DNA of 42,423 nt from positions 1-42,423 of the forward strand of contig JAFVWP010000138.1 of assembly GCA_017501565.1 (NCBI GenBank), read 5' to 3'. The notes under the pieces were generated by a model, which did not search any database, had not been told where the DNA came from, and saw only the letters and a program-made list of their open reading frames with translations. This stretch comes from Elusimicrobiaceae bacterium. GTDB lineage: Bacteria; Elusimicrobiota; Elusimicrobia; Elusimicrobiales; Elusimicrobiaceae. The translations under genes were made by a program, and so were the position numbers. Below, in pieces: positions 1 through 14,252 of this stretch (the first letter of the stretch is position 1; every line of letters starts with the position of its first letter).

Positions 1-767
1 GGAGAAAAGCCGATATAGTCTTTGTCTTTGGAATGTTCAATTAAATCCAAGGTTAACGTATTGATAATTTCCCCGTTGGAAGTGCCTATTTCGTCTTGCA
101 CGATTTGGGGTATATCTTCGCGCGTAATCAGCGCGGCTTTAACCGCGTCTTCTATGTCTCTGCCCAAGTAGGCTATTTTGTCAGCCACGCGGACGATACA
201 GCCTTCATACGTGGTCGGGAAACAACGGCGGTGGTTGATTTTTTCCAATTCATTGGGCGTGGAAGACGGACGAAGCTGATTGGTGGCAAAATCTTCCCCG
301 CAGTGGCATAAAATGCCGTCTTTCACCGCATAAGTAAGGTTTAGCCCTTCACCATAATTGGCTAAAAGCTCCACCACGCGGAAGCTGTTTACTTCGTGTA
401 AAAAAGGCGTCGGCGCAATACAGGCCGCCAGGGCTTTTTCCCCTTCGTGGCCGAAAGGAGCGTGACCAATGTCGTGCCCCAGGCCGATGGCATAGGCTAA
501 ATCTTGGTCTAAATTCCAATTTCCGCTTTGATTCAGCCCCCGACAAATGGCCGCGGCAATGGTTGCTACGTGTAAAACGTGCTCTATGCGGGTACAAATA
601 TGGTCATTATCCGGTGCAAAGAATACCTGTGTTTTATGTTTCAAACGGCGAAACGGCAAAGAATGGATAATTTTGGTTTGATCGCGAAAGTATTCCCCGC
701 GCACATCGGGTGTTTGCGGGCGCGTTCTTTTGTAATAAATATCTGGGGTTAATGGGTTTTTATTCAT
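1..767 (-). CDS. dgt: dGTP triphosphohydrolase (dGTPase), 3' end cut by window
   Basis: Reading down from an ATG at 767 gives 255 open codons that run off the window start, so the C-terminus is missing. The protein is an HD-domain dNTP triphosphohydrolase, which removes triphosphate from dGTP and so tunes the cytosolic dNTP pool. Visible family motifs are the N-terminal RGEYFRDQTKIIHSLPFRRLK stretch (residues about 24-43), the metal-binding His near residue 63 (TRIEHVLHVA), the HD pair at 98-99 (GLGHDIGHAPFGHEGE), and a later Asp in RVADKIAYLGRDIEDA. The gene is divergent from coaD across 38 bp. It has no Shine-Dalgarno; a TATCAT box lies exactly 6 nt before the ATG, suggesting a leaderless mRNA. 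The family assignment is firm; strict dGTP specificity within the family is not provable here. Confidence 0.93.
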   Translation of the reverse strand, partial: MNKNPLTPDIYYKRTRPQTPDVRGEYFRDQTKIIHSLPFRRLKHKTQVFFAPDNDHICTRIEHVLHVATIAAAICRGLNQSGNWNLDQDLAYAIGLGHDIGHAPFGHEGEKALAACIAPTPFLHEVNSFRVVELLANYGEGLNLTYAVKDGILCHCGEDFATNQLRPSSTPNELEKINHRRCFPTTYEGCIVRVADKIAYLGRDIEDAVKAALITREDIPQIVQDEIGTSNGEIINTLTLDLIEHSKDKDYIGFS

Positions 768-773
768 AAATTT

Positions 774-782
774 ATGATACCA
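774..782 (-). promoter_or_regulatory. Extended -10 promoter of dgt, leaderless geometry
   Basis: On the minus strand TGG-TATCAT (extended -10, TGn plus hexamer) is followed by AAATTT and then the dgt ATG. The expected start point, 6-7 nt after the hexamer, falls on the ATG itself. No purine-rich Shine-Dalgarno lies upstream and the -35 region (TTATGG) is poor. The same geometry occurs before the genes at 10199, 19815 and 21954. Confidence 0.55.
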
Positions 783-805
783 TAATATAGAGAGGACCAT
801 AAAAT

Positions 806-1372
806 ATGAATGAAAAAAAACGTATTGTTTTTCAAGGAACTTTTGACCCCTTTACCAACGGCCACTTAGCTGTCGTAAAGGCGGCGCGCGCCGTATTTGA
901 CGAAGTTATAATTTTGCTTTTGGTAAACCCGGATAAAAAACCGCTTTTTTCTTTAGAAAAACGCCAGGCCATGATAGAAGCCAGCGTAAAAGATATGCCC
1001 GGTGTGTCTGTGGAGCATTTTGACGGACTTTTGGTGGATTATCTGAAAGCGCATGAGCTGTCTGCCTGTGTGCGCGGGGTGCGCAACAGCACCGATTTTG
1101 ACTATGAAAAACAAAACCATTTTTTAAGCCAAAAGCTTTATCCTGCCTTGCAGACTTTATTTTTGCCGAGCGACCCCCAATGGGAATGTGTCAGCTCTTC
1201 TGCCGTTAAGACGGCTTGTGAACAAGGCACTTTACCGCAAGAATGGTCCGTAGCGCCGCTGCGTTTGTTAAAAACCATTATCCATACGGGCGGAAAACTT
1301 CCCAAAGAGTGGGTGCCCGAGCCTGTATTGCGTGAATTAAAAAAGACTTTTCCCAAACTATTGGTTTTTTAA
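806..1372 (+). CDS. coaD: Pantetheine-phosphate adenylyltransferase
   Basis: CoaD transfers AMP from ATP to 4'-phosphopantetheine, giving dephospho-CoA, the penultimate step of CoA synthesis in the cytosol. The nucleotidyltransferase signature FQGTFDPFTNGH is at residues 9-20, with the TNGH form of the HxGH motif at 17-20. The family stretch VRGVRNSTDFDYE (around residue 90) and the SSSAVK motif (around 132) are also present. At 188 residues it is about 25 longer than usual because of a C-terminal tail after the SSS motif region. The start is preceded by AGAGGA at 791-796. It is a single-gene unit ended by a strong hairpin at 1394-1420 and is divergent from dgt. Confidence 0.93.
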   Translation: MNEKKRIVFQGTFDPFTNGHLAVVKAARAVFDEVIILLLVNPDKKPLFSLEKRQAMIEASVKDMPGVSVEHFDGLLVDYLKAHELSACVRGVRNSTDFDYEKQNHFLSQKLYPALQTLFLPSDPQWECVSSSAVKTACEQGTLPQEWSVAPLRLLKTIIHTGGKLPKEWVPEPVLRELKKTFPKLLVF

Positions 1373-1393
1373 CCAAAAAGATATTAGGACTTT

Positions 1394-1420
1394 GGACCTA
1401 CCTATGGGTAGGTCCTTTTT
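1394..1420 (+). terminator. Intrinsic terminator of coaD
   Basis: A perfect 9-bp stem, GGACCTACC and GGTAGGTCC, with a TATG loop, is followed by TTTTT. It sits 21 bp after the coaD stop codon. Confidence 0.9.
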
Positions 1421-1423
1421 GTT

Positions 1424-1452
1424 TTGCGGGCCTTTTCCATATTTCATATAAT
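1424..1452 (+). promoter_or_regulatory. Predicted promoter of the giant gene
   Basis: TTGCGG (1424-1429) and a perfect TATAAT (1447-1452) are separated by 17 nt. The start point would be near 1459, just ahead of the AAGGAG at 1471-1476 and the upstream ATG at 1483. This placement matters because it puts the upstream start codon inside the transcript. Confidence 0.6.
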
Positions 1453-1482
1453 ATATGTGGAGACGGATAAAAGGAGAAGCTT

Positions 1483-4400
1483 ATGGCTCGCATGACTAAA
1501 TCAGCCTTGCGTTCCAGCTTGACGACGATGCCTTTACAGGCTCAGCCGGTCAAGCCGTCTGCCGCTTTCCCTGAAAAAGCAGTTTTTAACTATCATCTTT
1601 CCTATCAAAAAAATAGTTTTTCCACCCGTTGTAGCCGTTTTATTCAACAAAATTTAAAAATCCGTTGTTTTATTCAGTTTCCCGCATGGGCCAAAAGTAC
1701 CTTTCTGTATAGGACCTTTGGCCCTTTCTTTTGCCGTCCTAAAACGCCAAAATATATAGTAAGGAACCCTATTATGAAACTAATATCATTATTTTTATCT
1801 TTCGCCATTCTTTTTACGTCTGTGGCGCCTTCGTATGCTCAAGCCTTAGAGGCTATGGAGCAAGAGCGGATTGGTGCGGGTTTTGCCCATTGGCAAAGCG
1901 AGTTTTTAACAACATCTTTCAATGAAGTATTTGAAGCGGAAGTGGCGAAGCATACGCCTGGGGTGCAATTGGAAGATTTAAAGAAATTGGTAGATGACTT
2001 AGAGTTATTTACAGATCCTGGTTTTAATCCGTCTTCTTTAGGGATAGAGCCCGGAGAAGAGATGACGTACGAACGTTTTGCGCAAGAATACAAAACGCAG
2101 ATGAAGGCGGATGCGAATAGCGCGGCGTTGTTAGAGATGATAGGGGACGATGCGGAGTATCAGAAGTTATTAAACCAAGAGATAAAGAAGGCGTATGCGG
2201 AGTATGAAGCGGACGTAGAGAAATTTGAAGCGCAAGAGATGGAACAGATGAAGTCTTTGATCAAGCAGGTATGGGAGAATCGGAAGAAATACAGCCAAGA
2301 AGATCAAGATTGGTTAGCGTTTGAAGGGATGCCGTTTTTGTATGGGATAGGGTTATTGGATAAAGCAACGGCGGAAAGTGTAGCTGGGGTAGTACGTTCG
2401 GTAGTCAAGAATGCGGAAAGAGATTGTTCAAAAGTAGGAGTATGGACGAACATAAAGGCGAAGGTAGGGGCGAAAGATGATTTGAATGCCCAGAATGCGC
2501 GATGTGAGAGAGGGTTAAAGGCGATCATTCCGTTGGGGATATTAGGGAAAGCGGCGAAAGGGAAGGATCGCGGTGATGCGACGTTGATTGGTCGCTTTAT
2601 GATAGGTGGTTATCGTGGGTTAGCGGGAGCTGGGGTAGCGATGGTAGGGACGCAAGCGTTGTTAGGGTTGAATGGCGGACAAGAGTTAGCGACGTTTTTG
2701 TTAAGGGCGCCGGTGGATCCGGAAGCGGAGATGAGCTATGCGTTACAGATACTCAATTTAGGGTTAGAGGGGTTAAGTCCGATAGCGTTGTATGGAGATT
2801 TGGAGTATGAGGACGCGTTTTATAGTTATTGGACGACGAAGCCGTTGGAGTATACTTTTTATGAAGATGACGATGGGAATGTAAGGAACATTTTTTATGA
2901 TATAGGGCAGGTGGTAGCGGAATTAAGCAAAGAAGGGGATAGTACGGCGAAGTATGTAGTAGAAAAAGTAAACCGGGCGCAGACGGCGTATCATTGGGAC
3001 AAGATGGCTGGAACTTGGCAGTTGGACGATCCGATGGAAGTGATGGGGTTAAATTCCAAATTTTTTGTAGCGGGGACATTAAAAGGGGGCTATGAATTTG
3101 ATGAAGAGTTAAAGAGAAGATGTCCTCCGCAGGAGCGTGCGGCGAAGAAGTGTGGGTATAAAGACGGCTATTATGAGTATCCGAACACGCATGGGGTATT
3201 GATGGATTATGAATGGGAGGATCGTTTAGCGTGGACGTGTGGCGCGGTAAATACGGCTCGTTTACCGAGTTGGGGCAATGGGGGAGCGGTGCCGCTTCCT
3301 TTAGCTCGTGGTGGTTATCTGGCGTACAGGATGCGTCAGCAATTAATTGCTGATGACACGATAGCTCCGAGCTTAAAGGCGGAAATAGCGAATACATTAG
3401 CGCGGTACTACAACAAATATGCGCGTGCGTGTAACAATATAATGGAAGCGGTAGCAACGGGCACGCAGAAACATGCGTATCACACGGTGACAGACAAGCA
3501 ATGGGACGCGTACAACACGCAGATAGTCAATAAAATAACTGGGGAAGTATTGAGACGCAAGTCTGACAATGAGATATTGTCAACTAATTATACTGCAGCG
3601 ACGTTTGAAGCCTCTTGGAAGAAAGGGGAAGCGAACCGGGCGCAAGCTAAGAAGACGCAAGAAGCGACGAAATGGGCGCAATTAGCGGTAGATATTATTT
3701 TGATTCTTGTGACGGGCGGATATTCGTTGATAAAAGGGGTGATAAAAGCTCCTGTAAAGATGATGAAATGGGGTGTAAGGACGATTCGTGCGGCGCGCGC
3801 GGCGACGGCGAGCAAGAACATTTTGAAAGGGTTAAAGATTTTAGCGCGGAACCATCGCTTCTTAAAATATGGAACGACGAGTTTAAGAAAGGCGATGGCG
3901 AATCGGATAAAGTATAGTTGGAGTCGATTTAAATTAGGGGTAAAGCCTGAAGTATTGATGACGTTTGGAGAAAAACAGACGTTGAATGCGTTGCGTGTGA
4001 AAGGAGCGGCGGCGTATTCGCGCGAGTTGATGCATGCAGCGCGAGTAGGGCAGCAAGCGATGGCTACGCGCGCTCCGTTATTATCCAGAAGTGCGGCAGA
4101 AGAAGTGAAATGGTTAAATGAGACGATGCAAGCGCAGAAGGTATTAGGGATAGATGGTGCGAAAGGCTTTAGAATAGCGGCCAATCAAGTGGGCAAACTC
4201 AGCCCGACTCCTGCGAACACGATTCGGTTAACGCAAGCGGTACCGCAGGGGTATTCTGTGCGGGTGTTGGAAGGGGCGGAAGTATTGGGTAAATCTCCGA
4301 GTGCGCGGTTGAGTGCGGTGGAGTTGTATGAAGCGCGCAATGGGGTTGGTTTTAAAAAGAGTGCGCAACGCTTTTTGCAAGGAGCGAAAGCGAAGGTCCA

Positions 4401-7400
4401 CAAGGTTGGGCAACGCATGGGGCTAATTTCTGAAAAATCCGGCAGCTACGTAAAAGTAGGCCAAAACTACTATAAAGTAGGGTATGGGCAGACGGTGGTA
4501 GATCTCAATGGAGAGTTAAGAGTAGCGGAAATAGGGCAAGAGTTGGTATTAGATGGGCAAGGGATATTTGTACCCTACGGCAAGCAAGCGGTGCGGGTGG
4601 TAGGTCGTCCGATGTTTGCAGATGCGGATTTAAGTTTAGAGCAGATCGCCAAGAATTTGAAATTGAACAAAACGGCGGTCCGCCCGGCGGTCAATGGAAG
4701 CAACATTGCATTTGAGCAACGTCCGTTCTGGAAGAATGGGGTGACGAAGAAAGCGGTAGAAGGGATAAAGGTAGCGCAAGGTCCGTTGATGGAAGTAGAT
4801 GATTTTGCGGCGGGATACAATCGTGTTCGCAATGCGTACACGACGCGGCGTGTGGAAGTACCGCAGATGCAAGCCAGATGGGACGCGCAATTAAACGGCT
4901 ATGTGGTGGAACAAGGGGCCGGGACGAGAATGGTAGAAGAGTTAGTTCCGGTGCAAGGCAGAAGTCGTGTAGCTGTTGCGGGCGAACAGACGTTAAGTCC
5001 GGCTGAGTTGCAAGCGCGAGAGCATTCGCAAGCCAGAGCGGCGTACCAACGTCAGCAGAGAGTGTTAAGAGAAGAAGGCAATTTAAGAGCGAGCCAAGAG
5101 TTGCAAGCGAGCTACATGGCGCAATTGGAAGAAAATAGTGCCAAAGATGCGGCGCGCGCGGCGTATGAAGCGACGGAGAAAGGCAAAGCCGCGGTAGCGG
5201 CGCGCCAAAGAAAGGCGTTCCAATGGGAAAGATTTTACAATAAAGTAGACAAATACACCTTTGGTGTAGGCGGAAAAGCGTTAAGAATGCTTAACCAAAA
5301 AGCCACGTATATGGCCGCGGCGATGATAATGAACACGTCCAGCCCAGCGGTAGCGAATACGGCGGCGGCAGTAAGCTCGTTAGCGGCAGATGTTCGCCCT
5401 GTGGTGACGATGGTAGACCCGCTGATGTTTGAACGTGGGGGCTCCATGTTGGTGGGCGGTGGCCGTGTTGTTGGCGGTCCTAGCTTAATCACGAAGGGAG
5501 CGCCGCGCTTTGCAACGGCGGCCGAACAAGCGGCCAGCGTAGCGAAGCAAGGCAGCCAATTAAGCCGCCAGGGTGCAGCGTTTAGAGTATTGCAACAACA
5601 ACGCGCGGAGAGTATATTAACGGCGAGCATGGCACGTCTGCAAGCCGTAAGCCAAGGCGGTTTTGGCCTGGTGGACGGCGTAGGCTATGCGCTCAATAAT
5701 GCCATGAACGCATTTAAATACTTCTCCCCGGTTACGGCGATTAAATACATACGCAATCCGTATTACATTGCGCATGAAAGGGTAGCGGCCAATTTGTCGC
5801 AACAAATTGCAGTGCAAAACTTGTTGAAAAAACAACAGACATTTCAAATTCAGCAAAGTCTGGCTGAATTACAAATTGAACAGGCGGCTGTTCCCGTTGT
5901 AGCGTATGTCCAACATAATTTGAAGAGCGCGGCACAAAATCTTTATTTTAACCTTATTGCTCCGATTGAGTTTGCCAAAAACCCGCATTATCAAGCGCAT
6001 ATTGCCCGCTTGAGCCAAGCAGCGGCTACCGCCAAGGCTACAAAGATGGCTCAAGGCTCCCTGCAAACGGAAGCGGTCCGTGCGGCCGTAAAATCTGTCG
6101 GTCAGGTGGCTTTACCCGCTGAACGCAAGAGCGGCCTTAAAGCCTTTTTCACCCGCAAACAAAATCATACGGACCCGTATCAATCTTTCTGGGAAAGTGT
6201 ATCCCAAAGTATTCCTTCTATCTCTGTAAAAGAAACGGCGGAAATCTTGCGCCGGAACTTTGAGGGAGAATTGCAAGGTGTCTTGGCGGTGTCTATTATT
6301 CCGCATAATCATCAATTGGAAAAAATATTTGCCGGACGAGATGCCAGCCGCTATGCCAAAGAAGCCGATGCCATTATTCAGGAAGCCCGCCGCCAAGCAG
6401 TGGTGGAATTTATGGAAACCTATGGCGAACGCTTGGAAAGCCTGAACAATGATGAACGCTTTGTAGAAATTTACACTTTACGCGCCAAGGCCGCGATTGA
6501 AAATTCCAAGTTGCCCGCAAAAGTACAAGCGGTCATTTTGGAAGGGTTTAACACGACTATTGAACGCTGGAGAAATTCTTCTTCTCTGTCCGTGAAAGGC
6601 AGTATTTCCAACGGGGTAGTATCCGTGCCGGTGTATAACTTGCAGGGTAAATATAAAGGTTCTTTGGAAGTTCCCGCCCCGAAAGGATTAATCCTGAAAA
6701 GCACGCAAACCTATTTTATTGTGGCCCAAGGTGACGGCACCGGGGAAATGTATGTGCGCGAATATGAAGACGCGGCCCAAGATGACGGCAAATCCGTACA
6801 AACCTTGATCCGCAACGATATTCCCTTAAAATCTTCAGCCCGCCAAGCCAATACCAATGAGTTGGGTGTTAAAAAGATTATGGAAGGGTTGTTGATGATT
6901 AACAACCGCTTGTGGCCGATGATGGGGTTGTATTTGTTGGCCGGTATGGGGAACGTATCTACCGTTATTTCCACTTTTGCCAAAGAATCTTTCGTAATGA
7001 CCAATGTGGATATGTACTTAATGGGCGGTGTTTCTACGGTGGCGCTGGGCTTTATGTCCTTGTTGGCGGGTATTTTGCAAAACCGCTTAAGCCATACCAA
7101 AAAAGGCTTTAACGACCAACGCGGTCGTTTGATTATCACCAATATCGGCTTGTTCTCTTCCATTGCGGCGTTTGCCTTGCCTTGGTTGGCGGGTATGGGC
7201 GGTGCCTTGGGCGAAGCTGTCATTTGGAAAAAATATTTATTGATGACTTCGTTATTCTTGTTGGGTATCGGTGGTGCCTTTTTGGACGTGTCTATGAAAC
7301 CCAGCTTGATGGCTGTCAGCAAAAAGGGTGACTATCAAAGCCGCTTGGGCAGATTGAGCACCTTTAAGCAGATTTTCGGTAATACCTTAAACTACATTGT

Positions 7401-8436
7401 GCCGCCTGTTTTCCTGGCTTTTGGATTGGGCTTTTTTGATAAGATGTGGGATTGGACCATCTTCTTCCCGGTATATACGATCGGCAGTGTGGCTATTGCT
7501 TCTATATATAACTTCTTCAAAATCCATGAACAGACTTTGGCTGATGAAAAAGAAATCTCTTCTACCAAAGGATTGTCTTTAACGAAAATGTTAAAGGAAT
7601 TGACGGGCAAACAAGGCTATAACCGCATTATCCGCCGCGGGGTGGTGGCCAATGCTTTCCACGGCGCGAATATGAGCATCTTTGGTTTGTTTGTAAATAA
7701 CTTAACCAAAAACCATTACGATGCTTTTGCCATGCAAGATATGTATACGGCGGCTAATGCGGCAGAAACCGGCGGCAACATGTTTGCCAATGTTTTTGAA
7801 ACTATTTTTTCTTCTTGGTTGGGTGTTTCCTTAATGGCTTTTACACTGCCGATTATTGTGGGCCGTTCGGTGGGGACCCGCTTGATGAAAAAAGATACTC
7901 ATTTGGGCTTTATCCATATTAAAAAGCAAAACAGCGGCGATGTTTTACGCGTCAGTATTTTGGGTGTATTGGCGGGGGTGTTGTTGATTAATGCACCGGC
8001 GTGGATGGGCTTGTTGAACAATGCCTTAGCTTTAGATCCGCTTCATTTTGGCAATTTGGTATGGGGCATACAATTGGCCGGTATTGTGGTGTTGGCCTTG
8101 GGCTTAACCAACGTATCTCCGATTGTGAACGGGTACACCACGGATAAAACCCGCCATGTATCCGATGCGGTATCTGCCTTACTTTCCGCGTCTTCTTTAG
8201 TCAGTTTTGCTATCAGCACGTGTTTCGGCTTGCTGTTAGACGTGATTGGGAAAGTCTCTTCCGTAGATTTGGCATGGTTGCCGTTCTTTATCCCGGTGAT
8301 TACTTCGCTGTATCTGTTAAATTACAGCGCTGAAATTTCCAAAGACGGCAAAACGGCCTCCGCTAAAACGCAAGAGAGCGAGCCGGAACAAGCAGCAGGA
8401 CAAGATTTGGATATTAACGATGCTTTGCCGAACTAA
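1483..8436 (+). CDS. Giant secreted/membrane protein with C-terminal MFS-like transporter domain
   Basis: One uninterrupted frame of 2,317 codons. Two starts are credible. ATG 1483 has AAGGAG 6 nt upstream and follows the promoter directly. In-frame ATG 1774 has AAGGA upstream and begins a classic signal peptide (MKLISLFLSFAILFTSVAPS, cleavage near SYAQA). Residues about 120-1780 (numbered from 1483) are a long, mostly helical, Ala/Gln/Arg-rich region with a hydrophobic stretch near 734-754 (LAVDIILILVTGGYSLIKGV) and a coiled-coil-like part near 1130-1250. Residues about 1800-2285 hold twelve hydrophobic segments with an MFS-type basic loop after the second (RLSHTKKGFNDQRGR). I recognise no catalytic motif and no family for the N-terminal 1,700 residues. 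Wobble bases are strongly purine-biased from roughly 2000 to 5250, then return to the window norm. Function unknown; the MFS-like call for the C-terminus is from helix count and loop pattern. Confidence 0.85.
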   Translation: MARMTKSALRSSLTTMPLQAQPVKPSAAFPEKAVFNYHLSYQKNSFSTRCSRFIQQNLKIRCFIQFPAWAKSTFLYRTFGPFFCRPKTPKYIVRNPIMKLISLFLSFAILFTSVAPSYAQALEAMEQERIGAGFAHWQSEFLTTSFNEVFEAEVAKHTPGVQLEDLKKLVDDLELFTDPGFNPSSLGIEPGEEMTYERFAQEYKTQMKADANSAALLEMIGDDAEYQKLLNQEIKKAYAEYEADVEKFEAQEMEQMKSLIKQVWENRKKYSQEDQDWLAFEGMPFLYGIGLLDKATAESVAGVVRSVVKNAERDCSKVGVWTNIKAKVGAKDDLNAQNARCERGLKAIIPLGILGKAAKGKDRGDATLIGRFMIGGYRGLAGAGVAMVGTQALLGLNGGQELATFLLRAPVDPEAEMSYALQILNLGLEGLSPIALYGDLEYEDAFYSYWTTKPLEYTFYEDDDGNVRNIFYDIGQVVAELSKEGDSTAKYVVEKVNRAQTAYHWDKMAGTWQLDDPMEVMGLNSKFFVAGTLKGGYEFDEELKRRCPPQERAAKKCGYKDGYYEYPNTHGVLMDYEWEDRLAWTCGAVNTARLPSWGNGGAVPLPLARGGYLAYRMRQQLIADDTIAPSLKAEIANTLARYYNKYARACNNIMEAVATGTQKHAYHTVTDKQWDAYNTQIVNKITGEVLRRKSDNEILSTNYTAATFEASWKKGEANRAQAKKTQEATKWAQLAVDIILILVTGGYSLIKGVIKAPVKMMKWGVRTIRAARAATASKNILKGLKILARNHRFLKYGTTSLRKAMANRIKYSWSRFKLGVKPEVLMTFGEKQTLNALRVKGAAAYSRELMHAARVGQQAMATRAPLLSRSAAEEVKWLNETMQAQKVLGIDGAKGFRIAANQVGKLSPTPANTIRLTQAVPQGYSVRVLEGAEVLGKSPSARLSAVELYEARNGVGFKKSAQRFLQGAKAKVHKVGQRMGLISEKSGSYVKVGQNYYKVGYGQTVVDLNGELRVAEIGQELVLDGQGIFVPYGKQAVRVVGRPMFADADLSLEQIAKNLKLNKTAVRPAVNGSNIAFEQRPFWKNGVTKKAVEGIKVAQGPLMEVDDFAAGYNRVRNAYTTRRVEVPQMQARWDAQLNGYVVEQGAGTRMVEELVPVQGRSRVAVAGEQTLSPAELQAREHSQARAAYQRQQRVLREEGNLRASQELQASYMAQLEENSAKDAARAAYEATEKGKAAVAARQRKAFQWERFYNKVDKYTFGVGGKALRMLNQKATYMAAAMIMNTSSPAVANTAAAVSSLAADVRPVVTMVDPLMFERGGSMLVGGGRVVGGPSLITKGAPRFATAAEQAASVAKQGSQLSRQGAAFRVLQQQRAESILTASMARLQAVSQGGFGLVDGVGYALNNAMNAFKYFSPVTAIKYIRNPYYIAHERVAANLSQQIAVQNLLKKQQTFQIQQSLAELQIEQAAVPVVAYVQHNLKSAAQNLYFNLIAPIEFAKNPHYQAHIARLSQAAATAKATKMAQGSLQTEAVRAAVKSVGQVALPAERKSGLKAFFTRKQNHTDPYQSFWESVSQSIPSISVKETAEILRRNFEGELQGVLAVSIIPHNHQLEKIFAGRDASRYAKEADAIIQEARRQAVVEFMETYGERLESLNNDERFVEIYTLRAKAAIENSKLPAKVQAVILEGFNTTIERWRNSSSLSVKGSISNGVVSVPVYNLQGKYKGSLEVPAPKGLILKSTQTYFIVAQGDGTGEMYVREYEDAAQDDGKSVQTLIRNDIPLKSSARQANTNELGVKKIMEGLLMINNRLWPMMGLYLLAGMGNVSTVISTFAKESFVMTNVDMYLMGGVSTVALGFMSLLAGILQNRLSHTKKGFNDQRGRLIITNIGLFSSIAAFALPWLAGMGGALGEAVIWKKYLLMTSLFLLGIGGAFLDVSMKPSLMAVSKKGDYQSRLGRLSTFKQIFGNTLNYIVPPVFLAFGLGFFDKMWDWTIFFPVYTIGSVAIASIYNFFKIHEQTLADEKEISSTKGLSLTKMLKELTGKQGYNRIIRRGVVANAFHGANMSIFGLFVNNLTKNHYDAFAMQDMYTAANAAETGGNMFANVFETIFSSWLGVSLMAFTLPIIVGRSVGTRLMKKDTHLGFIHIKKQNSGDVLRVSILGVLAGVLLINAPAWMGLLNNALALDPLHFGNLVWGIQLAGIVVLALGLTNVSPIVNGYTTDKTRHVSDAVSALLSASSLVSFAISTCFGLLLDVIGKVSSVDLAWLPFFIPVITSLYLLNYSAEISKDGKTASAKTQESEPEQAAGQDLDINDALPN

Positions 8437-8458: not shown

Positions 8459-8485
8459 AAAAAGCCCCTGAAAAGGGGCTTTTTT
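8459..8485. terminator. Bidirectional intrinsic terminator
   Basis: A-rich flank, AGCCCC stem, short loop, GGGGCT and a T-run, with A/T runs on both sides so it works on both strands. It serves the giant gene on the plus strand and the NifU/PHP pair on the minus strand, and it overlaps the stop codon of the latter. Confidence 0.9.
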
Positions 8486-9299
8486 ATCGGTTGAGTAATT
8501 TGCGTAATAAGCGGTCTGAATACGGAATGGGTATATTCATACCCAAAGAATTGATTCTGCCGGCATGCGGGCCGTGATAGTCCGAGCCGCCTGTGGCAAA
8601 CAAATCATATTTTCGGGCGATTTTTAAAAGCTCTTGCTTTAGTGTATAGCTATGAGAAGGGTAAAACACTTCCAGCCCCGCCAACCCCGCTTCTACCCAG
8701 GCCGGGAAATTCCATGCTTCTTGCACTAAACCCGGGTGCGCCATGACCGGAGTTCCACCGGCTTTTTTAATATAATGAATGGCTTCTATTACCGATACCC
8801 CGGCAGAAGGGACATACCCCACCTGGCCCGGTACTAAAAATTTACGGAAGCCTTCTTGGCGGGTGGGAACTATCTTTTTCTTTTTAAGTGCATCTGCCAC
8901 ATGGGCGCGGGAAAGGGTGTTCGGCGCTAAGGAAAAGACGTCTTCTTCGGTCAAATCTACTCCGCTTTGGGCGATTTGATGAATAATTTGCCGGATACGT
9001 TTTTGGCGGTTTTGGCGGTTGGTAGCCAAGAAATGTTGGAATTCTTCATTGTGCAAATCTACATTATATCCTAAAAAATGCAAATGGTCATGTTCGCGGG
9101 TGCTGATTTCCACCGCGGGCACAAAGGATATATTTCTTTTTTCACATTCTTTTTGGGCCCGCAAGACTCCATCGGTGGTGTCATGGTCGGCCAAAGCAAA
9201 AACTTTCACTCCGGCTTTATAGGCTTCGTAGGCCACCTCCTCGGGGGAGGAGGTGCCGTCCGAGTAAAAAGAATGGGTATGCAAATCTGCTTTAAGCAT
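8484..9299 (-). CDS. PHP-domain phosphoesterase (YciV/RNase AM-like)
   Basis: A 271-residue protein of the polymerase-and-histidinol-phosphatase (PHP) superfamily, a trinuclear metal phosphoesterase fold. Metal-ligand motifs run through it in the usual order: DLHTHS with H7 and H9, ADHDTTDG with D38-H39-D40, E64 in AVEIS, the HLHFLGY segment near 72-78, VMAHPG near 190, and GGSDYHG near 250. Length and motif spacing fit the YciV/TrpH subfamily, known to hydrolyse nucleoside 3',5'-bisphosphates or trim short RNA 5' ends. The exact substrate cannot be read from sequence. Its ATG overlaps the stop of the NifU-like gene by one base (TAATG), so the two are probably translationally coupled. Confidence 0.88.
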   Translation of the reverse strand: MLKADLHTHSFYSDGTSSPEEVAYEAYKAGVKVFALADHDTTDGVLRAQKECEKRNISFVPAVEISTREHDHLHFLGYNVDLHNEEFQHFLATNRQNRQKRIRQIIHQIAQSGVDLTEEDVFSLAPNTLSRAHVADALKKKKIVPTRQEGFRKFLVPGQVGYVPSAGVSVIEAIHYIKKAGGTPVMAHPGLVQEAWNFPAWVEAGLAGLEVFYPSHSYTLKQELLKIARKYDLFATGGSDYHGPHAGRINSLGMNIPIPYSDRLLRKLLNR

Positions 9300-11567: not shown

Positions 11568-11597
11568 TTGCAGTTGTATTGCGGAAATTGGTTTAAT
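11568..11597 (+). promoter_or_regulatory. Predicted promoter of the secA operon
   Basis: TTGCAG (11568-11573) and TTTAAT (11592-11597) with an 18-nt spacer. The leader to the ATG at 11655 is about 50 nt and T-rich. Confidence 0.45.
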
Positions 11598-11654
11598 ATA
11601 GAAGAAGGAATTTTCCCATTTCTTAGATTTATTTTTTTTAAGGATTTTTCAATT

Positions 11655-14252
11655 ATGATTAGAGTAATGATAGACAAAATTTTTGGTACCAAAAGCGAGC
11701 GCGATTTAAAAAAATTACAACATTATATAGACAAAGCCAATTCTTTGGCTGATGCCATGGCCGCTTTGGCTGATGAACAATTAAAAGAGAAAACACAAGA
11801 ATTTAAAAACCGCTTAGCCCAAGGGGAAACGCTAGATGAACTTTTGCCGGAAGCCTTTGCCGTCGTGCGTGAAGCGGCCAAAAGAGTCATCGGTTTGCGC
11901 CCGTATGATGTGCAATTTTTGGGCGGTATTGTTTTGCACCAAGGTAAAATTGCGGAAATGGGCACCGGGGAAGGGAAAACTTTGGTGGCGGTGTTGCCTT
12001 CTTACTTAAATGCTTTGAGCGGAAAAGGGGTACACGTCGTAACGGTCAACGATTATTTGGCCCGCCGCGACCGCCAATGGATGGGCCCGATTCATGAATT
12101 TTTGGGTTTGAGTGTCGGTTATATTAACCACGATATGCCCAACCACGAACGTCGCGAAATGTATGCCAAAGATATTACTTATGTAACCAATAACGAATTG
12201 GGCTTTGACTATTTGCGCGACAATATGGTCATCTCTGCCGAAGATCGTGTTTTGCGTCCGTTAAACTATTGTATCGTGGACGAAGTGGACTCTATTTTAA
12301 TTGACGAAGCCCGCACCCCGCTGATTATTTCCGGTCCGTCTGACCAAAGCACCGATAAATATTATATTGTTAACCGCTTGATCCCTGCGTTAAAAGTCCG
12401 TTTGATTACGGAAAATGACGAAGTAAAAGCCAAATATGAAAACATTGATTTGGCTGAAGGCTATGACGGCATTGTAGATGAAAAAAATCATACGGCTACC
12501 TTAACGGAAAGCGGTATTGCCAAAGCAGAAAAGTTTTTAAATGTTTCCAATTTGTACGATGATGTGCAATCGGAGTGGGTACATCATATCCACCAGGCAT
12601 TGCGTGCCCATCACTTATATGAAAAAGATGTAGATTACGTCATCAAAGACGGCGAAGTGATTATCGTGGACGAATTTACCGGACGCTTGATGCCGGGCCG
12701 CCGTTGGAGTGATGGCTTGCACCAAGCCGTAGAAGCGAAAGAAGGGTTGCAAATCAAAGAAGAAAACCAAACATTGGCAACCATTACTTTCCAAAATTTC
12801 TTTAAACTTTACAAAAAGCTTTCCGGTATGACCGGTACGGCTATGACGGAAGCCAATGAATTTTGGCAGATTTACAAATTAGATGTAGTGGAAATCCGCC
12901 CCAACCGCCCGTCTAAACGTTTGGATTATCCGGATTTGGTTTTCTTGACGGAAAAAGACAAATTTCAAGCCATTGTGGCTGAAATTGAAGAACTTTGGAA
13001 ACATGGGGCCCCGGTGTTGGTGGGTACCCGTTCTATTGAAAAATCCGAAAAATTGGGCAATATGTTGCGTGCTAAAGGCATTCCGCATAAGGTATTAAAT
13101 GCCAAGTATCACGAAATGGAAGCTCAAATCATCAGCCAGGCCGGACGCAAAGGAGCGGTAACCATCGCTACCAACATGGCCGGTCGCGGTACGGATATTG
13201 TATTGGGCGGCAGTCCCGCCGAAAAGAGCGAACAGGAATATGTGGTCGCGCAAGGCGGTCTGCACGTATTAGGTACCGAACGCCACGAAAGCCGCCGTAT
13301 TGACAATCAATTGCGCGGCCGTTGCGCCCGCCAAGGGGACCCGGGTTGTTCCCGCTTTTACATCTCCTTAGAAGATGAATTGATGCGTTTATTTGCCAAT
13401 ACAGCCAAAATCAGCTCTATTTTAAGCACATTGGGTATGAAATCCGGCGAAGCGATAGAATCGCGCCTGATGAGCCGCCAGATTGAAGGGGCCCAACGCA
13501 TGGTGGAAGGCCATAACTTTGACATTCGTAAACACTTGTTGGATTATGATAAAGTCATGAACCAACAACGTACCGCTATCTATGGGCTTCGCAATGCTAT
13601 TTTAGACGGCGAAGATATGACCAATACCACTTTGCGCATGATAGAAGAAGTGGTGGAAGAAATAGTGGAAAACCATTTTGTGCCGCGCAACCCCGCCAAG
13701 AGTAATTTTGAAACGCTCAATATTACTTTGCGTTCTTTATTCCCCTATGCTTTTGAATATAAACATGAAAACACGACGGATAAAACGTGCGAGTCTTTGG
13801 CAGCGGAAATTTTTGCGATTGTGGAAAAACTTTATCATGAACGTTCGGATTTCTTTGCCAGCCAAGGGGTTATTTTCCCGGAATTGGAACGTATGCTTTT
13901 GTTGCAAATCATTGATAATGCCTGGAAACAGAATTTGTATGAGTTGGACCAATTAAAGAGCAGTGTCAGTTTGCGCGGATACGCCCAAAAAGACCCGCTG
14001 ATTGAGTATCAAAAAGAAGCCTATAAACTTTATGCCGCCATGATGAACAAAGTGCGCGACTTAATGGTAGGCTATATTTTCCGCTTGCAATTGCCGCCTG
14101 TTCGCCAGGCTGTTTCCCCTAAGAAACAAGCCACCGAACAAAAGCAAGACAATGCCGGTGAAGAATCTTCTGTACGCAAAATAGGCCGCAATGATCCTTG
14201 TCCTTGCGGCAGTGGAAAAAAATATAAAAAATGTTGTGGAGCTGAAAAATGA
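11655..14252 (+). CDS. secA: Protein translocase ATPase SecA
   Basis: SecA drives preproteins through the SecYEG channel by ATP hydrolysis. The start at 11655 has AAGGA 10 nt upstream; the frame stays open back to 11568 but that extension is T-rich, non-conserved looking and lacks a ribosome site. ATG 11667 is a less likely alternative. The 865-residue product shows Walker A MGTGEGKT (102-109), the DEAD-like VDEVDSILIDEART (from 208), the KLSGMTGTAMTEA segment, the second helicase motif NMAGRGTDIVLGG, and a C-terminal SEC-C zinc motif with C849, C851, C860 and C861 (CPCGSGKKYKKCC), which binds SecB or ribosomes in known homologues. It is the first gene of a seven-gene overlapping operon and overlaps the next gene by 4 bp (ATGA). 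Confidence 0.97.
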   Translation: MIRVMIDKIFGTKSERDLKKLQHYIDKANSLADAMAALADEQLKEKTQEFKNRLAQGETLDELLPEAFAVVREAAKRVIGLRPYDVQFLGGIVLHQGKIAEMGTGEGKTLVAVLPSYLNALSGKGVHVVTVNDYLARRDRQWMGPIHEFLGLSVGYINHDMPNHERREMYAKDITYVTNNELGFDYLRDNMVISAEDRVLRPLNYCIVDEVDSILIDEARTPLIISGPSDQSTDKYYIVNRLIPALKVRLITENDEVKAKYENIDLAEGYDGIVDEKNHTATLTESGIAKAEKFLNVSNLYDDVQSEWVHHIHQALRAHHLYEKDVDYVIKDGEVIIVDEFTGRLMPGRRWSDGLHQAVEAKEGLQIKEENQTLATITFQNFFKLYKKLSGMTGTAMTEANEFWQIYKLDVVEIRPNRPSKRLDYPDLVFLTEKDKFQAIVAEIEELWKHGAPVLVGTRSIEKSEKLGNMLRAKGIPHKVLNAKYHEMEAQIISQAGRKGAVTIATNMAGRGTDIVLGGSPAEKSEQEYVVAQGGLHVLGTERHESRRIDNQLRGRCARQGDPGCSRFYISLEDELMRLFANTAKISSILSTLGMKSGEAIESRLMSRQIEGAQRMVEGHNFDIRKHLLDYDKVMNQQRTAIYGLRNAILDGEDMTNTTLRMIEEVVEEIVENHFVPRNPAKSNFETLNITLRSLFPYAFEYKHENTTDKTCESLAAEIFAIVEKLYHERSDFFASQGVIFPELERMLLLQIIDNAWKQNLYELDQLKSSVSLRGYAQKDPLIEYQKEAYKLYAAMMNKVRDLMVGYIFRLQLPPVRQAVSPKKQATEQKQDNAGEESSVRKIGRNDPCPCGSGKKYKKCCGAEK

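What the first reader, a model, noticed from the sequence alone, without database searches (positions are those of the whole stretch)
1483..8436. Giant signal-peptide protein fused to a 12-helix MFS-like transporter
About 1,700 residues of unknown, helical, Ala/Gln-rich sequence precede a complete-looking transporter. A large exported domain joined to an MFS carrier is an unusual architecture. It could be a surface binding or tethering protein that feeds a transporter, or a polytopic adhesin-like protein.
Basis: partly seen in the sequence, partly recalled or inferred. Interest (0 to 1): 0.6.

Follow-up and report, generated by a model that had tools for sequence, protein, structure and literature searches.

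The report
Giant mosaic gut-bacterium membrane transporter fusion
A bacterium of the animal-gut family Elusimicrobiaceae carries a single 2,200-residue protein in which a large exported domain is genuinely joined to a 12-helix transporter, and it belongs to a family of giant proteins whose front halves are nearly identical between two gene loci of one genome while their rear halves differ.

Summary
The ORF at 1483-8436 is real, intact and not an assembly join. The likely start is ATG 1774 (2,220 aa, signal peptide at the start). Its last ~480 residues are a genuine MFS transporter: homologues pass Pfam's MFS_1 cut-off, an AlphaFold model has 12 helices and matches solved MFS structures, and loop charges give the normal N-in/C-in topology. 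Ahead of it lie an exported, cysteine-paired domain, one transmembrane helix, about 1,000 cysteine-free residues with an internal signal-peptide-like stretch, and a small beta barrel.

The gene sits at a conserved locus (dGTPase-coaD-[giant]-PHP-SecA). Relatives have 1,160-2,340-aa versions, sometimes with another MFS type or two in tandem; the probable Elusimicrobium minutum protein has 3,968 aa, two MFS-like regions and trypsin-like domains.

Unexpectedly, two loci per genome share a near-identical block ending at a fixed junction. Seven genomes show 96.5-100% DNA identity there; the window and its paralogue differ at 7 bases and no residues over 364 bp. The block is barely alignable between species, and no similarity remains after the junction. 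This suggests gene conversion of a front half carrying different rear modules.

Transport and co-assembly are inferred; the substrate is unknown.

The parts
1688..1725 (+). terminator-like inverted repeat GGGCCAAAAGTACC...GGACCTTTGGCCC followed by T-rich DNA, then promoter-like sequence just upstream of the start; conserved upstream of most locus-A relatives
1774..1845 (+). Sec-type signal peptide MKLISLFLSFAILFTSVAPSYAQA, a family hallmark (64 of 66 genomes of the genus have a match)
1846..3687 (+). exported N-domain (residues 25-638), acidic (net -20), six Cys including a pair conserved in the family (residues 218/244)
3688..3744 (+). transmembrane helix (residues 639-657), conserved in position in full-length relatives, followed by strongly basic sequence
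3745..5298 (+). basic, Ala/Gln-rich, Cys-free region (residues 658-1175, net +42)
5299..5388 (+). internal signal-peptide-like stretch (NQKATYMAAAMIMNTSSPAVANTAA); comparable stretches in relatives
5366..5729 (+). visible part of the block shared with paralogue contig G000:C121: 357/364 identical bases, no residue differences in 120 codons; similarity ends abruptly at 5729
5730..6909 (+). locus-specific linker after the junction
6616..6825 (+). small five-strand beta (SH3-like) domain before the MFS, in the model
6910..8358 (+). 12-helix MFS domain, N-in/C-in by loop charges
3..800 (-). dGTPase-like neighbour (5' flank of locus A), runs off the contig
806..1372 (+). coaD-like cytidylyltransferase (5' flank of locus A in relatives too)
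8484..9299 (-). PHP-domain phosphoesterase (3' flank of locus A in relatives)
11568..14252 (+). secA (3' flank of locus A in relatives)

Best explanation
The gene makes one giant inner-membrane protein. Its signal peptide exports a disulfide-bonded N-domain into the periplasm. A single helix (residues 639-657) brings the chain back into the cytoplasm, and the protein ends in a functional, cytoplasm-in MFS carrier. It is one member of a family of modular giants limited, in the sample, to three genera of one Elusimicrobiota family. In the window genome and in at least six relatives, the front half is kept almost identical to that of a second giant gene by gene conversion, while the rear modules differ (another MFS type, or MFS plus a phosphoesterase). 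The most likely working is that the common front half is an export, anchoring or co-assembly module that places different transporters and enzymes in the same envelope complex. Shown: architecture, MFS fold, synteny, shared block and junction. Inferred from sequence: topology. Inferred only: transport activity, periplasmic folding, gene conversion as the cause, co-assembly, substrate.
For: MFS: homologues pass the Pfam cut-off; fold and PDB matches. Loops before TM1, 3, 5, 7, 9 and 11 carry the K/R while those before TM2, 4, 8, 10 and 12 carry none. Membrane-embedded polar or charged residues are invariant in seven sequences (Asp/Lys in TM4, His/Asn in TM7, Gln/Asn in TM5), and the MFS is far more conserved than the stretch before it. 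Fusion is ancestral and syntenic. Exported N-domain: signal peptide family, conserved Cys pair, TM at the same place. Shared block: 7 genomes at the 3' side 96.5-100% identical, with almost no amino-acid changes in the longest pairs (0 in 120 and 0 in 126 codons), versus about 39-61% between species (73% for one close pair) and no blastn match after the junction in the five genomes tested. Seven genomes also have paired contig ends at the signal-peptide side.
Against: In G050 and G010 the two front halves are only ~61% identical and orthologues are closer (76-78%), so homogenisation is not general. For most genomes only the ends of the shared block are seen, because assemblies break there. The internal signal-peptide-like stretch, and the lack of Cys over ~1,000 residues, do not fit a simply cytoplasmic middle region. 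The substrate is unknown and the MFS motif A is altered. The N-domain model failed.
Confidence: 0.5

Rival explanations
1. The MFS part no longer transports anything and serves as a membrane anchor or scaffold for the large exported domain (receptor-like or adhesin-like use).
For: MFS types differ at the same locus (type 1, type 2, or both in tandem) while the overall architecture stays; some family MFS-like regions are below Pfam detection; motif A is altered.
Against: Strong conservation of polar residues inside the membrane within type 1 is more than an anchor needs.
Confidence: 0.25
2. The polypeptide is cut (for example by signal peptidase at the internal signal-like stretch), so the gene encodes a polyprotein giving a separate exported protein and a separate transporter.
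For: Signal-peptide-like stretches at comparable positions in relatives (FRRKTATAALALSLNMTPLPSAG, KMAVSTFLTSAMLVTASPAAQA, and the window's own).
Against: Export after that stretch would put the MFS N-terminus outside, against the loop charges; no further crossing helix was found.
Confidence: 0.15
3. Assembly artefact: the contig joins the front of one gene to the back of another across the repeat.
For: A repeat of at least 364 bp with 98% identity lies inside the gene, and most relative assemblies break there.
Against: Both flanks of the window gene are those of locus A in other genomes where the gene is continuous (G050 in 2 contigs, G010, G047, G045, G024), so the architecture stands even if a few block bases come from the other copy.
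Confidence: 0.04
4. The N-domain is a surface decoy or recognition domain diversified by phage or host pressure, and identity between loci is a by-product of recombination rather than of co-assembly.
For: Front halves diverge to about 20% identity between species while two copies in a genome are nearly identical.
Against: Substitutions within the longest shared stretches are all synonymous, which looks like constraint rather than diversification; no population data.
Confidence: 0.2

Closest known systems
Major facilitator superfamily (Pfam PF07690 MFS_1)
   Same: 12 helices, MFS fold, N-in/C-in, membrane-embedded conserved polar residues
   Different: about 1,700 extra residues with a signal peptide before TM1; motif A altered; window copy below Pfam detection
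   Same: signal peptide, related N-domain (96.6% profile match to group B), TM near residue 550, MFS-like regions
   Different: two MFS-like regions in tandem (read by eye, below Pfam detection), then trypsin-like domains (Trypsin_2, 57.9 bits)
Polymorphic or modular families with a constant front half and exchangeable rear modules (known from general knowledge, for example contact-dependent toxins)
   Same: constant front, variable back, sharp junction
   Different: the backs are transporters and hydrolases, no immunity genes or toxin domains were found, and the front is constant only within a genome
MFS fusions such as LplT-Aas (general knowledge)
   Same: MFS carrier joined to another function in one chain
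   Different: there the partner is a cytoplasmic enzyme of a few hundred residues and there is no exported domain

Membership tests
Major facilitator superfamily | 12 TM helices in the MFS fold | tested here: met
Major facilitator superfamily | sequence match to MFS_1 | tested here: met
   homologues L028, L030 and L032 above the gathering score; the window protein itself below it
Major facilitator superfamily | cytoplasmic N- and C-termini (positive-inside) | tested here: met
Major facilitator superfamily | motif A (GxxxDRxGRR/K) in loop 2-3 | tested here: inconclusive
   AGILQNRLSHTKKGFNDQRGR: R and RGR kept, Asp replaced, insertion
Major facilitator superfamily | transport of a solute | not testable with these tools
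   no assay
Adhesin / autotransporter | recognisable adhesive repeats or C-terminal beta barrel | tested here: not met
   no such Pfam or NCBIfam hit; C-terminus is helical MFS
Polymorphic toxin system | C-terminal toxin domain with adjacent immunity gene | tested here: not met
   rear modules are MFS; locus neighbours are PHP and SecA
Elusimicrobiaceae giant signal-peptide/MFS family (defined here) | family signal peptide, Cys-paired N-domain, TM, MFS, locus dGTPase-coaD / PHP-SecA | tested here: met

The most novel reading that the evidence does not exclude
A two-locus system in which gene conversion keeps the exported and anchoring halves of two giant membrane proteins identical inside each genome, while between species they diverge almost beyond recognition. 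That identical half joins different transporters and phosphoesterases into one envelope complex or serves as a self-identity tag.
Probability: 0.3. Interest if true: 0.75.

Novelty: new variant of a known kind. Interest (0 to 1): 0.56.

Why it matters
MFS carriers are normally 400-550-residue stand-alone proteins. A conserved family of 1,200-4,000+-residue fusions in small-genome gut bacteria, two or more loci per ~1.5-Mb genome, is a large investment and suggests a central envelope function in this lineage. The within-genome identical, between-species divergent front half is a clear and testable case of concerted evolution, and it explains why many of these metagenome assemblies break inside these genes.

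Tried and rejected
Pfam and NCBIfam on the window protein: no hits. Profile search of PDB sequences: none. First genome-contig scan with the whole protein: none; with the MFS alignment: six loci. Viral contigs: no relative. Rfam: only sub-threshold chance matches at the terminator. Single-sequence AlphaFold of the exported domain: unusable. Sequencing-error or mis-join idea: rejected on synteny. Profile-profile comparison of type 1 with types 2, 3 and 4 gave no confident match, so common origin of all rear modules is not claimed; types 3 and 4 match each other (100%). Literature on a giant Elusimicrobium protein: none found in the held library.

Full report
OBSERVATION. The frame 1483-8436 (+) is open for 2,317 codons. 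The signal peptide MKLISLFLSFAILFTSVAPSYAQA starts at codon 98 (ATG 1774). Relatives align to the stretch before it only as DNA with stop codons, and a hairpin/promoter-like region is conserved just upstream of the start in most locus-A relatives. I take 1774 as the start (2,220 aa), although 1483 has a good Shine-Dalgarno sequence.

THE C-TERMINUS IS AN MFS CARRIER. The window protein has no Pfam or NCBIfam match. Homologues 39-51% identical to it reach MFS_1 with 36.8-38 bits against a cut-off of 33.4. A model from seven sequences (pLDDT 70.6, pTM 0.62) shows a small beta domain and 12 long helices. It matches MdfA, SPNS2, FucP and GLUT structures at probability 1.00. Loop charges follow the positive-inside rule for N-in/C-in. 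Polar and charged residues inside helices 4, 5 and 7 are invariant, so I favour a working transporter over a relic.

THE FRONT. Residues 25-638 are acidic, with six Cys; one pair is conserved across the family. A strong transmembrane helix at 639-657 recurs in full-length relatives and is followed by basic sequence. The next ~1,000 residues lack Cys entirely, although ten neighbouring proteins of the window average about 1% Cys. They contain a signal-peptide-like stretch at ~1176-1205, and comparable stretches occur in relatives. A cytoplasmic middle fits the MFS orientation; the Cys absence and the signal-like stretch do not sit easily with it. I leave this open.

LOCUS AND RELATIVES. Locus A reads dGTPase - coaD - giant gene - PHP - SecA in the window and in relatives. 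Continuous genes stand there in G050 (2 contigs), G010, G047, G045, G024, G021 and G056, so the fusion is not an artefact. The type-1 MFS of the window occurs in 13 of 66 genomes of the genus. The other locus-A genes examined carry a different type (type 2), and four genomes have type 2 and type 1 in tandem. The signal-peptide profile matches 64 of 66 genomes. In a sample of the order, matches to the locus-A profile occur in 3 of 19 genera, all in one family. Named records are MAGs labelled Elusimicrobiaceae, Elusimicrobiales or Elusimicrobium, three of the six with ruminant hosts in their titles (roe deer, water buffalo, yak).

THE FAMILY IS MODULAR. G050 has three giants of 2,133, 1,822 and 2,311 aa. 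Partial paralogues in G023 (4,592 aa) and G058 (3,092 aa) carry MFS_1 (66 and 56 bits) plus 5'-nucleotidase C-terminal or metallophosphoesterase domains. A 4,512-codon frame in G087 ends in an MFS and carries TPR, ankyrin and receiver domains.

SHARED FRONT HALF. Contig G000:C121, a paralogue with another membrane module, matches window 5366-5729 at 357/364 bases with no amino-acid change, and then the similarity stops. Its downstream gene differs from that of the window, so it is another locus. The same pattern recurs in G058, G023, G067, G057, G080 and G072: two contigs end in 77-381 bp that are 96.5-100% identical and diverge at a comparable junction. Seven genomes show paired contig ends at the signal-peptide side, 90-100% identical. 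Between species the same stretch is 39-61% identical, close to unalignable, except one closer pair at 73%; after the junction no blastn match remains within a genome in the five tested. In G050 and G010 the two front halves are ~61% identical and have drifted with their loci. Near-identity is therefore frequent but not universal; gene conversion is my inference. In broken assemblies only the ends of the block are visible.

MECHANISM. Most likely the protein is an inner-membrane MFS transporter with a large periplasmic domain, and the front half it shares with a paralogue serves as a common export, anchoring or assembly module for different rear modules. Architecture, MFS fold and shared block are shown. 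Topology is inferred from charges and cysteines. Transport, substrate and co-assembly are hypotheses.

NOVELTY. The fold is known. The giant fused architecture, its family-wide modularity and the shared front half were not found described in the held library. I rate it a new variant of a known kind.

Noticed in passing
L034 5084-8371 (G016:C1): Family signal peptide and N-domain joined to a peptidase C13-like (His-Gly ... Cys) region instead of an MFS; Pfam match below cut-off.
   Followed up: partly
L124 1757-13660 (G086): 3,968-aa family protein with several trypsin-like domains whose expected active-site Ser motif reads G-[FY]-C-G-[SA], as in chymotrypsin-fold cysteine proteases.
   Followed up: partly
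L125 90-13625 (G087:C9): 4,512-codon frame with TPR, ankyrin, response-regulator receiver, trypsin-like and MFS regions in one chain; its 5' end may be cut by the contig.
   Followed up: partly
L104 and L105 (G023:C9, G058:C8): Paralogue rear halves of 4,592 and 3,092 aa with MFS plus 5'-nucleotidase C-terminal or metallophosphoesterase domains; could couple nucleotide hydrolysis to uptake.
   Followed up: partly
window 1483-1773: Good Shine-Dalgarno and ATG open a 97-codon in-frame extension before the signal peptide; probably non-coding or a fortuitous frame.
   Followed up: partly
window 1688-1725; L027 355-372: Terminator-like inverted repeat GGGCCAAAAG...CTTTTGGCCC about 50 bases upstream of exported-protein genes; an 18-base core occurs only twice in the genome, both upstream of signal-peptide genes.
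   Followed up: partly
L077, L096-L100: The second locus lies beside EmrB-type MFS genes and, in several genomes, a GlpT-like MFS gene, a cluster of transporters.
   Followed up: no
L121 5627-9889 (G000:C92): Further partial giant family member (1,421 codons) in the window's own genome.
   Followed up: no
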